A DNA stretch of 64,000 bases from Macrobrachium rosenbergii. Lineage: Eukaryota; Arthropoda; Malacostraca; Decapoda; Palaemonidae. Below the pieces are notes generated by a model that saw nothing but the letters and a program-made list of their open reading frames with translations, was not told the DNA's origin and did no database searches. The position numbers and the translations under genes were made by a program. The stretch is taken from the NCBI RefSeq assembly GCF_040412425.1, contig NC_089744.1, forward strand, positions 27,177,001-27,241,000. Direction: 5' to 3'. Of this stretch, positions 48,300-58,810 are shown one piece after another. Numbering within the stretch: the first letter of the stretch is position 1; each line of letters begins with the position of its first letter.

Positions 48300-48529
48300 A
48301 ATAAAATCTGCAAGACCAGCAGACACTTGTCATTTACACAATAATGCAGAGATATTCTGAGATTTTTACGGCTTACAAGATTTTAATTATCAAATGCACG
48401 CTGTCGTCACGCTCAGAGAATAAAGTCTTTAATTTTTTTCCAAGAACTGATATTTTCAGTCCTCCTGACTTCAAGTGGGTGCTTACAGTACACCACTGGA
48501 GCTGGAGAACGACTACCAATGGTGCTCAG
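48300..48529 (-). mobile_element. LINE reverse transcriptase, C-terminal piece (segment 3 of 3)
   Basis: Minus strand reads 'PLEVRRTENISSWKKIKDFI' (about 48490-48430). This is the terminal 'LP.EVR...F.KKLK.FLF' block of a CR1/Jockey-like LINE. It continues the LINE piece at 53966-54192 across the piggyBac insertion. The reading frame ends soon after in stops, and the 3' limit near 48300 is approximate. Confidence 0.65.
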
Positions 48530-48560
48530 CTAGAACGACCGAGCGGTGAAATGACCGCTC
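48530..48560. repeat. piggyBac terminal inverted repeat, left
   Basis: 'ctagaacgaccgagcggt' followed by 'atgaccgctc'. Matches the inverted form at 53930-53961. The flanking TTAA is not preserved. Confidence 0.8.
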
Positions 48561-49138
48561 AAATATTTACATCGTAAAAGGGTCTACATTTTTGCTTATT
48601 GAAACATCCTAATCCAATGGTATATAATTATTCATAGTAAGGAGATAGAATAATGTTAGCATAAGCAGTAATATAAAATTCCACAATTATCACACTAAAG
48701 ATTATTTGCTACAATGAAATATTGTTTGCAGCACTGAGATAAGAATTATGTTGAAAGGAATTACAAGATTAAAATTAATTAAAACAGAATAGCAGTCTCT
48801 TTCTAATCCTGGACTTGGAATAACGGCGCTGTCAAATGACCGCATTCCAGTTTCTACTGACAGTCGTTATTGTCAGTATAGCGAAGGTTTACTGGTACGT
48901 AAACATATATTTATATCTTTTACGGTAATGAAATAACGTCTGAGATGAGGTTCAGTTCAACATAATATGTATTTGAGTACCATAGCGTAAAATACATTAT
49001 ATTAGTTTTTATAAAAAAAAAGTTTTTACACTAAAAACAAAAGATTGAAAAACAGATAATGAAGTATACCTGCGGGTTTATGCATTTTCAGTTTAAAGTC
49101 CCTTCGTTTCTACTCTAGGAATAAAGTAAATTTTTTCA

Positions 49139-49470
49139 AAAACATTTTTTGCAATGGAGCTTCCTGAACATCTTCCTTGTGCATCTGCCACATACAAATC
49201 CCTTGCATTGGTGGCACATGTCTGACGCCTTATTCCCACTGCAATATCCTATTTGGCACGGTTTTCTTTTTTTTTTTTCAGTAATTATGGAAACTTCTGG
49301 TTCAGCATCAGTATCGTTTTCACTGCTATATACCGCATTGCCATTTTTCAACGTTTCCTGAAGTTCTTTGGGCAACTGAAGAAGGAAGCTGCGACGGGAG
49401 AGTTTCTGACCTGTAACTTCCCTGTAAAGAACTGATGCATCGATGCCTGCTTGATCAAGTACATTATAAA
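49139..49470 (-). pseudogene. piggyBac transposase, C-terminal piece
   Basis: Minus strand from 49470 reads 'VLDQAGIDASVLYREVTGQK', then 'FLLQLPKELQETL', an acidic linker, and a cysteine-rich tail. The tail has CQIGYC, CHQC, CGRC and CKKC pairs, the zinc-binding RING/PHD-like domain that ends many piggyBac transposases and helps bind terminal repeats. The last ~79 codons (49375-49136) are still open. The upstream frame is cut at 49470 by the composite element and by a frameshift at the original joint. Confidence 0.85.
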
Positions 49471-49483
49471 ACTAGCTAACCAA

Positions 49484-50568
49484 CCCTTTTATCCAAATAT
49501 TACTGTGCTGACTGTACCATTTATCCGGGTATTACTGTGGTGAGTGTCCCTTTTATCCAGATATTGCTGTACTAACTGTCCCTTTTTATATTTATACAAT
49601 AAAAGATAAAAAACTGTCCCTTTTTAACTAAACACGACTTTGCTGACTGTCCCATTTATCCAGATATTACTGTGGTGACTGTCCCATTTATCCAAGTATT
49701 ACTGTGGTGACTGTCCCTTTTATCCAGGTATGACTCTACTAACTGCCCCACTTATTCAGGTGTTGCTGTACTGACAGTCCCTTTTTCAATCCTTTGTTTT
49801 TAATGTAAAACTTTTTTTATTCAGGTATTACTGTAGTGACTGTCCCATTTATCCAGCTACTACTGTGGAGACTGTCCCATTTATCCAAGTATTACCGTGC
49901 TGACCATCCCATTTATCCAGGTACCACTGTGGAGACTGTCCCATCTATCCATGTATTACTATGCTGACTGTCCCTTTAACCCAGGTATTACTATGCTTAC
50001 TGCCCCTCTATCTAGACATTACTGTGGTGACTGTCAATCTTATCCAGGTATTACTGTGGTGACTGTCCCATTTATCCAAGTATTACTGTACTGCCTGTCC
50101 CTCTTATCCAGGTATTACTGTGCTGACTGTCCCTTTTATCCAGGCATTACTGTGATGACTGTCTGTTTTATCCATACATTACTGTGGTGACTGTTGCCAG
50201 GTATTACTGTGGTGACTGTCCCATTTATCCAGGCATTACTGTTCTGTCTGTCCCTTTTATCAATGTATTACTGTGCTGATTGTCCTTTTTATCCAGGTAT
50301 TACTGTGGTAACTGTCAATTTTATCCAAATATTATTGTGGTGACTGTCCCATTTATTCAGATGTTACTGTGATGGCTGTCCATTTATCCAGGTATTACTG
50401 TGCTGACTGTCCCATTTACCCAGGTATTACTGTCATTTTATCCAGCTATTACTGTGGAGATTGTCTATTTTATCCACACATTACTGTGGTGACTATCACC
50501 CTGGTAATAATGTGATGAATGTCCCTTTTATCCAGGTATTACTGTGGTGACTGTCCTATTTATCCCCA
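49484..50568 (+). repeat. 35-bp minisatellite array (expanded copy)
   Basis: About 30 diverged units, consensus near 'ttttatccaggtattactgt' plus 'ggtgactgtccc'. It is interrupted by A/T-rich inserts near 49580-49625 and 49780-49825. Confidence 0.92.
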
Positions 50569-50710
50569 CTAAACCTAAACACACCCTCCCACTTAACTGA
50601 AACACCCCTACTAAACCTAAGCACACCCCTACTAAACCTAAACGCACACCCTTCTATACCTAAACACATCCCAGCTAAACCTAAACACACACCCCACTAA
50701 ACCTAAACAG
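50567..50710. repeat. CCTAAA-containing ~20-bp tandem repeats
   Basis: 'ctaaacctaaacacacccc'-type units repeat about seven times. The complement has TTTAGG, close to but not the arthropod telomere unit TTAGG. Present only in the expanded copy of the composite element. Confidence 0.88.
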
Positions 50711-50814
50711 AAACCTTGATACAGAATTATTAATCACAGGAAAGGAAAGCATTTCCAATAATACATTTCTGTGGTATCAAGTACATGAAGTGAGGTGTGA
50801 TAAACCTGTAGAGT

Positions 50815-57290: not shown

Positions 57291-57362
57291 AAACCAGCAA
57301 AGTAGGGCACCACACCGAGTCGGTGGTGGGCGACTTCCCAAAGCCTGGAAGGCGCTTCGGAC

Positions 57363-57733
57363 GTGGTAGGGCCCCTTCCCCCATCAGGCGGGGCCAGGTA
57401 TCTCCTGACAGTTGTTGACTGCTCCACCAGGTGGCCCGAAGCGACGCCCATGGAAGAAGCCACCGCCAGTGCGTGTGCCGAGGCCCTCCTCTCCAGCTGG
57501 ATCAGCCGGTTCGGTGTCCCGGACCATATAACAACGGACAGGGGCCCAGCCTTCCTGTCCGAGCTGTGAACAGCCCTGGCACGCCTGCTGGGGACCACTC
57601 ACCACAGCACCACCGCCTACAATCCTGTGGTCAACAGATTGGTGGAAAGTTTCCACAGGTCCCTGAAGGCGTCCCTCATGGCCCGCTACACTGCCAAGAA
57701 TTGGAAGTATATACCAGTTGCGTGGTCGCCCCC
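57363..57733 (+). pseudogene. Gypsy integrase catalytic core
   Basis: The frame reads 'YLLTVVDCSTRWPEATPM' (first catalytic Asp, about 57411) and 'GVPDHITTDRGPAF' (second Asp, about 57533). A TGA follows at 57567-57569, where tryptophan is expected. The same frame continues with 'NRLVESFHRSLKASL', holding the catalytic Glu at about 57642. The HHCC domain is missing upstream and the C-terminal domain is degraded. One in-frame stop plus the deletion would inactivate it. Confidence 0.88.
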
Positions 57734-57869
57734 GTAAGGCCCCGGACCCAGGCAGCGCTGCAGCCAACCACTCCCGCATGCACTGCAACTCCCAGCTGAC
57801 AGCGCGGAGCCGCGGCACTCTCCAGCGCCCCAGCAGATACCTACTTTAATCAGACGTCACCTACGTCTT

Positions 57870-57884
57870 GGGGGGGGGGGGTGG
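57870..57884 (+). promoter_or_regulatory. Polypurine tract of the Gypsy element
   Basis: A G-run of about 12-13 bases followed by TGG lies three bases before the 3' LTR, as expected for plus-strand priming. Confidence 0.75.
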
Positions 57885-57887
57885 TAT

Positions 57888-58234
57888 TGTAAAGTCCCCG
57901 CTCAACGGGTTTTCTCTAGTGAACCTCGCGTTTTCTACGGTGCCTTTCCCATGACCTTAGGTCGGAGTACCTAGCCATGTTTTATTTATGTAAATGTGCA
58001 TTTATTACTTACTCATTTGTGCCCTTTTGTATTGTGTCTAATCTGTTAATTTTATTTGTCACGTTATCTGTATTTTACCTGTCCTGTTTCACATTGAGAA
58101 TGATTGACCTCGGGTCACCTGTATGTCCTTGTATGTTTTTGTACTGACGTCAGCACACCGCTTTATAAGCAGCCTGCTCACTTAATAAACAAGCAGTCAA
58201 TGTCTACCTGCTCTCTCTTTTGCACCCTCTCACA
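57888..58234 (+). repeat. 3' LTR (347 bp)
   Basis: Matches the 5' LTR except for a 22-base deletion after 'cccttttgtattgt' and scattered substitutions. One substitution breaks the TATA palindrome (aagcag for aagcgg). Confidence 0.95.
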
Positions 58235-58238
58235 GTTC

Positions 58239-58810
58239 CTAAGGCGTAACTCTATTAATCTTGCTGCTCTATTTAACATATTTTTCAACTTCCTAAGTTA
58301 CATCTTAGGCATACTATGGTAGCGTTGCAATGGTCGCCTCTATGGCACAATTAATCACAAGTTTTTTCTGTTCATAGAGTATTAAACAAGATATTCTTGC
58401 ATGAAGGCAATATTTCCAAGATGATGACCTGTAACCTGTAAATTACTGATATGTGTTCTGAGACAAATTACCGTCCAATTCACGTACTTTGTCAACAATC
58501 TGGAATGATTACTATTTCATATTTAGCTGAATATCGCTTAGGCTCCTTAAGTTACTTTCCCTTCCTGCCAAAATATTTTCAGATTTACGTTCATTTAATC
58601 TTAATTGTTTAAATGTCACCCACTCCTTAACACTGTAAGAATAATTTAGTTTTTCATTTGTATCCCCAATATCTTTTATGGAGAATTAAAACTGGGTTTC
58701 ATCCGCACTTTGCTTGAGTGTTACCCTATGTCCCCATAACTCATCTCACAATCCGGTTGTATAGAAGCACAATAGGACTGGACTTGATGTGCTTCCTTGG
58801 GGGTACTTTT
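58239..58810 (-). mobile_element. LINE reverse transcriptase piece (segment 1 of 3)
   Basis: Minus strand from 58805 shows 'YPQGSTSSPVLLCFYTTG', an RT domain PQGS.LGP.LF block. In later frames come 'MSYGDIG', 'HHLGNIAFMQEYLV' and 'LRKLKNMLNRAARLIELRLR' near 58280-58239. These fall in the right order for the RT palm, thumb and connection of a CR1/Jockey-like LINE. The YADD block is not readable. Many frameshifts. Continues at 54192 beyond the Gypsy insertion. Confidence 0.75.

What the first reader, a model, noticed from the sequence alone, without database searches (positions are those of the whole stretch)
48300..58810. Four mobile elements nested in one another, with readable insertion order
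A minus-strand LINE RT is split into three pieces (58810-58239, 54192-53966, 48529-48300) whose protein blocks run in the correct order when the inserts are skipped. The cuts coincide with a Gypsy element (GTTC duplication) and a piggyBac (TTAA at the right end). The piggyBac transposase is in turn split by a ~4-kb composite satellite element. The order is therefore LINE first, then piggyBac and Gypsy independently, and satellite element after piggyBac.
Basis: partly seen in the sequence, partly recalled or inferred. Interest (0 to 1): 0.75.

Follow-up and report, generated by a model that had tools for sequence, protein, structure and literature searches.

The report
Four nested mobile elements, order readable
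Four ordinary kinds of jumping DNA lie inside one another in an animal genome: an old LINE was hit by a piggyBac and by a Gypsy element, and the piggyBac was then hit by a repeat-filled element that is most likely a Helitron; the nesting is real and most of its order can be read, but such nests are common.

Summary
A frameshift-tolerant LINE profile from 111 database relatives finds three minus-strand pieces in consecutive profile positions: 117-309 at 58805-58253, 316-391 at 54192-53967 and 396-427 at 48502-48412. The third is weak by itself. The first joint holds a Gypsy element (54193-58234, GTTC duplication, LTR divergence 0.054). The second holds a decayed piggyBac-like element (48530-53961) with matching terminal repeats; TTAA survives only on its right, and its right side has no room for the N-terminal half of a transposase.

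Main correction: the "composite satellite element" is most likely a non-autonomous Helitron (49472-53440, minus strand). A second copy at 34456-35846 shares both ends. Copy 1 shows 5'-TC, CTAG-3', an A|T target and no duplication; copy 2 has the 3' hairpin. Joined flanks read on in frame.

Order: LINE, then piggyBac and Gypsy (mutual order unknown), then Helitron inside piggyBac. Loose end: 24 bases at the left piggyBac junction where about 4 are expected. The own-genome search did not complete. Ordinary biology, well preserved.

The parts
58239..58805 (-). LINE piece 1: RT from the PQG motif onward, decayed; 5' truncated at about 58805
   Evidence: profile 117-309 at 58805-58253, 118.9 bits; Pfam RVT_1 E 0.0061, below cut-off; tblastn
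53962..54192 (-). LINE piece 2 (region after the RT, ELHWLPVKAR...)
   Evidence: profile 316-391 at 54192-53967, 121.6 bits
48412..48505 (-). LINE piece 3 (C-terminal end, PAPVVYCKHPLEVRRTENISSWKK...)
   Evidence: profile 396-427 at 48502-48412, 29.8 bits against a random maximum of 26.1 in 60; 6 of 121 relatives match at E 0.006-0.049
48506..48529 (.). 24 bases between the piggyBac left end and LINE piece 3 where about 4 are expected; origin unresolved
54193..58234 (+). Gypsy-type LTR retrotransposon with broken pol
54193..54563 (+). Gypsy 5' LTR
57888..58234 (+). Gypsy 3' LTR
   Evidence: K2P 0.054 against the 5' LTR: 14 transitions, 4 transversions in 347 sites
54189..54192 (.). GTTC target-site duplication, left copy
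58235..58238 (.). GTTC target-site duplication, right copy
48530..53961 (-). piggyBac-like element, internally shortened, carrying the Helitron
   Evidence: terminal repeats; transposase remnants
53962..53965 (.). TTAA target site, right side only
53441..53786 (-). piggyBac transposase, middle part (FTSVKLAEKL...YCNPSKYRVD...RR*PILV), frameshifted
   Evidence: best of 3 solved chains listed at E <= 10 is 6x67, residues 349-462, E 0.21
49136..49471 (-). piggyBac transposase, C-terminal part with Cys-rich end (FYNVLDQAG...CKKCF)
   Evidence: ORF; follows the middle part in frame at the Helitron site
49472..53440 (-). Helitron-like element, copy 1 (3969 bases): 5' TCTTATATATAAAAG... at 53440, ...GGTTGGTTAGCTAG 3' at 49472; inserted A|T
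49484..50565 (.). 32-base tandem array inside the Helitron
50564..50709 (.). 21-base tandem array, copy 1 only
50816..53365 (.). about 142-base GGGAAG-rich tandem array; a single unit in copy 2
34456..35846 (-). second copy of the Helitron-like element (1391 bases), with 3' hairpin CCCGGC-AGC-GCCGGG

Best explanation
A 5'-truncated LINE copy (minus strand) inserted first. A piggyBac-like DNA transposon then entered it at a TTAA, and separately a Gypsy LTR retrotransposon entered it with a 4-base GTTC duplication; their mutual order cannot be read. A non-autonomous Helitron carrying minisatellite arrays later inserted between an A and a T inside the piggyBac transposase, without duplicating its target. 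Shown: three collinear LINE pieces, LTRs and duplication, terminal repeats, a second Helitron copy with the same ends, an in-frame empty site. Inferred: rolling-circle transfer by an enzyme supplied elsewhere, growth of the 142-base array after or during copying, and loss of the left TTAA in a small rearrangement.
For: LINE pieces in consecutive profile positions on one strand and collinear on single relatives, for example P0059: residues 5-168, 176-249, 251-282. Gypsy ends and GTTC; domains in the order gag-like, protease (weak), RT, RNase H, integrase. piggyBac terminal repeats 17 of 18 alike, no other in the window. Transposase middle part: T. ni piggyBac 6x67 is the best solved match, though only at E 0.21. 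Helitron ends fixed by copy 2, not by the reading frame; joined flanks then read ...SRR*PILV|FYNVLDQAGIDASVL in one frame; A and T flank the element; hairpin of copy 2 -8.6 kcal/mol, z -3.5, 0 of 200 shuffles as good.
Against: Left piggyBac flank: no TTAA, and 24 bases where about 4 are expected. LINE piece 3 alone is weak (29.8 bits against 26.1 and 25.7). The piggyBac pieces have no Pfam piggyBac match; the C-terminal piece alone finds no protein at E <= 0.001 among 35 candidates and no piggyBac chain among 5 listed. Helitron copy 1 has no hairpin in the 30 bases folded; copy 2 ends CCAG instead of CTRR and has T instead of A before its 5' end. No RepHel partner was sought, because the genome search did not complete.
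Confidence: 0.82

Rival explanations
1. LINE piece 3 is not the continuation of pieces 1 and 2 but part of another copy of the same family, brought beside the piggyBac left end by recombination between copies. The 24 bases at 48506-48529 would then code LSTIGSRS, residues that piece 2 already carries at its end.
For: LSTIGSRS scores 9.6 bits at the expected profile place; 9 of 79985 stop-free window 8-mers reach that. tblastn of P0033 aligns both piece ends to the same 8 residues. TTAA is missing on the left.
Against: Two piggyBac insertions would have to sit at nearly the same codon of two LINE copies. The 24 bases also match an inverted LINE stretch (14 of 15 bases at 54178-54192), a score reached by 11 of 2000 random 24-mers, so the coding match may be chance.
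Confidence: 0.12
2. The composite satellite element is a local array (replication slippage or unequal exchange within the piggyBac), not a mobile element.
For: Most of its length is tandem repeats.
Against: A second copy about 14 kb away shares the left end, the single-copy middle (161 bases, 84%), one unit and the right end (25 bases, 92%); the flanks join in frame at the ends so fixed.
Confidence: 0.04
3. The satellite element is mobile but is another kind (Helentron/HINE, or another element without a target duplication).
For: HINEs in oyster carry satellite arrays between end modules (passages of PMC7492417); copy 2 is flanked by T on both sides.
Against: Copy 1 fits A|T with TC and CTAG ends, the canonical Helitron signs listed in PMC8969392 (passages). 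An inverted-repeat scan around copy 2 with a minimum of 16 bases listed none at its ends, but the 11-12-base subterminal repeats of HINEs are below that limit.
Confidence: 0.15

Closest known systems
Canonical non-autonomous Helitron
   Same: 5' TC, CTAG 3', A|T site, no duplication (copy 1); 3' hairpin (copy 2); no long coding region; tandem repeats inside
   Different: copy 1 lacks the hairpin, copy 2 ends CCAG with T before the 5' end; about 16 units of 142 bases in one copy and one unit in the other
HINE / Cg_HINE of Crassostrea gigas (PMC7492417, passages seen) and DINE-TR1 (recalled; cited in PMC9659126, passages seen)
   Same: rolling-circle type non-autonomous elements carrying satellite-like arrays, no target duplication
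   Different: Cg_HINE prefer TT sites and have subterminal inverted repeats and a microsatellite; here TC/CTAG ends and A|T in copy 1
piggyBac superfamily (T. ni piggyBac, PDB 6x67/6x68)
   Same: order of transposase motifs, terminal inverted repeats, TTAA on the right, Cys-rich C-terminus (last point recalled)
   Different: TTAA lost on the left, N-terminal half missing, very low sequence similarity (E 0.21)
Ty3/Gypsy LTR retrotransposon
   Same: TG...CA LTRs, GTTC duplication, gag-PR-RT-RH-IN order
   Different: broken pol; nothing unusual seen
LINE (non-LTR retrotransposon) like those found in Palaemon carinicauda
   Same: RT and C-terminal region alike; the closest relative shown, unnamed P0059, has 47% over 93 residues in piece 1 and 66% over 44 in piece 2
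   Different: decayed, 5' truncated; clade not determined

Membership tests
Helitron (canonical) | 5' end TC | tested here: met
   TCTTATATAT in both copies
Helitron (canonical) | 3' end CTRR | tested here: inconclusive
   CTAG in copy 1, CCAG in copy 2
Helitron (canonical) | insertion between A and T, no target duplication | tested here: inconclusive
   met in copy 1 with an in-frame empty site; copy 2 is T|T
Helitron (canonical) | hairpin near the 3' end | tested here: inconclusive
   present in copy 2 (38 bases folded, -8.6 kcal/mol, z -3.5), absent in copy 1 (30 bases folded)
Helitron (canonical) | RepHel protein in the element or a partner | not tested
   frames inside the element are at most 128 aa and lie in the arrays; partner not sought, genome search unanswered
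piggyBac | TTAA on both sides | tested here: not met
   right 53962-53965 present; left absent; filed only as piggyBac-like
piggyBac | terminal inverted repeats | tested here: met
piggyBac | DDE transposase of the piggyBac kind | tested here: inconclusive
   top solved match 6x67 but E 0.21; no Pfam match
Ty3/Gypsy | two LTRs, TG...CA, short target duplication | tested here: met
Ty3/Gypsy | integrase after RT and RNase H | tested here: met
   RVT_1 E 9.7e-15 in ORF 56473-56994, RT_RNaseH_2 E 2.8e-21 in 56828-57418, rve E 2e-10 in 57306-57569
LINE | non-LTR RT with its C-terminal region | tested here: met
LINE | target duplication and 3' tail | not tested
   outer ends not resolved

The most novel reading that the evidence does not exclude
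The Helitron family is a satellite nursery: the two copies share a 32-base array, but only the copy inside the piggyBac shows about 16 units of the 142-base repeat against one, so a satellite seems to have grown inside a single transposed copy; and the left piggyBac end was healed by about 24 bases copied inverted from the LINE itself.
Probability: 0.25. Interest if true: 0.4.

Novelty: new member of a known kind. Interest (0 to 1): 0.22.

Why it matters
It gives a readable, internally checked order for most of four insertions, and it turns an unnamed satellite block into a likely Helitron whose two copies differ mainly in array length. That is a small, concrete case of tandem repeats spreading and growing inside mobile elements. 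Otherwise it is ordinary genome history.

Tried and rejected
Rejected: satellite as a local array. A target duplication at the satellite joints (ACTAG on both sides) was considered and dropped once copy 2 fixed the ends. An early reading of piece 3 in another frame (AEHHW*SFS as APRLWNSLP, by eye) was dropped because the frame with PAPVVYCKHPLEV fits the relatives shown better.

Led nowhere: Rfam and tRNA scans (nothing). Viral-contig scan with the piggyBac C-terminal piece (17 pattern matches, one locus, L001; the frame holding the match is a long one I judge phage-like) and with a terminal-repeat pattern (L002, L003, 17-base matches inside other genes). Protein search with the piggyBac C-terminal piece: 0 of 35 candidates at E <= 0.001. 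Paper searches for nested elements gave no title or abstract start on point (listings only); some searches were seen as listings, with passages read of PMC7492417, PMC9659126 and PMC8969392 only. The array marker counts (4 of the 142-base unit in copy 1) come from a strict pattern and under-count; I use (16 copies of a 106-base reference at 60% or more). In one search the score row for the end of piece 2 was set in the wrong register and is not used.
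Full report
Setting. The window is animal-type DNA: a coatomer alpha (COPI_C) coding stretch lies at 4051-4389 (Pfam E 1.9e-42), and 3 of the 120 listed LINE relatives carry a species name, all three Palaemon carinicauda, a shrimp (P0026, P0036, P0119). A decapod host is plausible but not shown. The source genome could not be searched: the genome search did not answer in 15 tries (calls listed in Tried and rejected).

The LINE. Piece 2 read through one frameshift found two proteins among 31 candidates, and one of these, P0002, found 239 at E <= 0.001 among 567 candidates, 120 listed. 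Against the whole window, the 121 proteins held gave 159 matches in piece 1, 141 in piece 2, 6 in piece 3 and 4 elsewhere at E <= 0.05. A profile was built from 111 of the 121 (10 without LHWLP left out) and aligned to the DNA with frameshifts allowed. The minus-strand matches are 58805-58253 (profile 117-309), 54192-53967 (316-391) and 48502-48412 (396-427). The positions are consecutive; 6 and 4 profile residues are missing at the two joints. At the Gypsy joint 14 bases stand for 18 expected. Piece 3 is weak by itself: 29.8 bits, against a best of 26.1 in 60 order-1 random windows and 25.7 elsewhere in the real window; its place and strand are as predicted. The profile match stops near 58805 although the profile starts 116 residues earlier, so the LINE looks 5' truncated.

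The Gypsy. LTRs of 371 and 347 bases differ at 18 of 347 aligned sites (14 transitions, 4 transversions, K2P 0.054) plus gaps, the longest 22 bases. GTTC flanks the element. The first frame matches DUF7041 (E 2.4e-11; that this is a gag domain is recalled) and a later one RT (E 9.7e-15); RNase H (E 2.8e-21), integrase (E 2e-10) and a weak protease match (E 0.028, below cut-off) are. The order is that of Ty3/Gypsy elements (recalled). The pol reading frame is broken into several frames.

The piggyBac. CTAGAANGACCGAGCGGT occurs twice in the window, at 48530-48547 (+) and 53959-53942 (-); 0.05 expected. TTAA abuts the right end. Two stretches of transposase remain. The middle one (53786-53441, frameshifted) has the solved T. 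ni piggyBac transposase as best match, residues 349-462, but only at E 0.21. The C-terminal one (49471-49136) ends in a Cys-rich tail like piggyBac's (recalled) but finds no family by itself. About 175 bases lie between the right end and the middle part, no room for the first about 350 residues, so the copy was internally shortened as well as split.

The satellite element is most likely a Helitron. The 32-base array at 34532-35547 turned out to be part of a second copy of the whole element. After its array follow a stretch 84% identical over 161 bases to 50711-50871, one GGGAAG unit, and a right end identical at 92% of 25 bases; the left ends share, on the minus strand, GGTTGGT[TC]AGC[TC]AG. 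These ends give 49472-53440 for copy 1 and 34456-35846 for copy 2, both minus strand. Copy 1 begins TC, ends CTAG, and sits between A and T. These are the signs of canonical Helitrons given in PMC8969392 (passages seen). Copy 2 has a 3' hairpin (-8.6 kcal/mol, z -3.5), which copy 1 lacks; copy 1 may have lost it by a deletion between CCC runs (inference). Copy 2 departs by CCAG and a T before its 5' end. The ends come from copy 2, not from the reading frame, yet the joined flanks of copy 1 read SRR*PILV|FYNVLDQAGIDASVL in one frame, with one stop. This indicates that the Helitron came after the piggyBac and left no duplication. Copy 1 has about 16 units of the 142-base repeat, copy 2 one.

The unclean junction. 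Between the left piggyBac terminus and the codon where LINE piece 3 resumes (48505) lie 24 bases where the profile leaves room for about 4, and TTAA is missing. Two after-the-fact readings fit about equally: they code LSTIGSRS, residues piece 2 also carries (9 of 79985 window 8-mers score as high), or they are an inverted copy of LINE bases 54178-54192 (14 of 15 alike; 11 of 2000 random 24-mers score as high against the LINE pieces). The first would weaken the single-LINE reading; the second would be a repair scar. I cannot decide.

Order. An element cut by another is the older: the LINE precedes Gypsy and piggyBac, and piggyBac precedes the Helitron. Gypsy against piggyBac, and Gypsy against Helitron, cannot be ordered from this locus.

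Known or new. Nested elements are common (recalled). Rolling-circle elements carrying satellite arrays are described for oyster (PMC7492417, passages) and Drosophila (PMC9659126, passages). I saw no account of this family, but looked only through the listings.

Noticed in passing
34456-35846: Second, shorter copy of the Helitron-like element with its 3' hairpin and only one 142-base unit.
   Followed up: yes
58901-59787: Inverted repeat of 43 bases, 79% complementary, 801 apart (ACAGTTTCGGTCAAATTC inside both arms); looks like a MITE just upstream of the truncated LINE, with CAACATT near both outer ends.
   Followed up: partly
46379-46766: Foldback of two 70-base arms, 97% complementary, 248 bases apart.
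   Followed up: no
353-1901: Reading frames that resemble a DIRS-type tyrosine recombinase (recalled motif; only one of them, 1329-1901, was scanned and had no Pfam match).
   Followed up: no
4051-4389: Coding exon of coatomer alpha subunit (COPI_C, E 1.9e-42).
   Followed up: partly
26668-27897: 1.2-kb run of imperfect TA repeats.
   Followed up: no
36504-37185: Tandem arrays of 28-30 bases and longer (TGCTTAAGAAGTTTGTTGG-like); no match to the nest's arrays.
   Followed up: no
22739-22797: Weak LINE C-terminal profile match on + (25.7 bits), probably chance.
   Followed up: no
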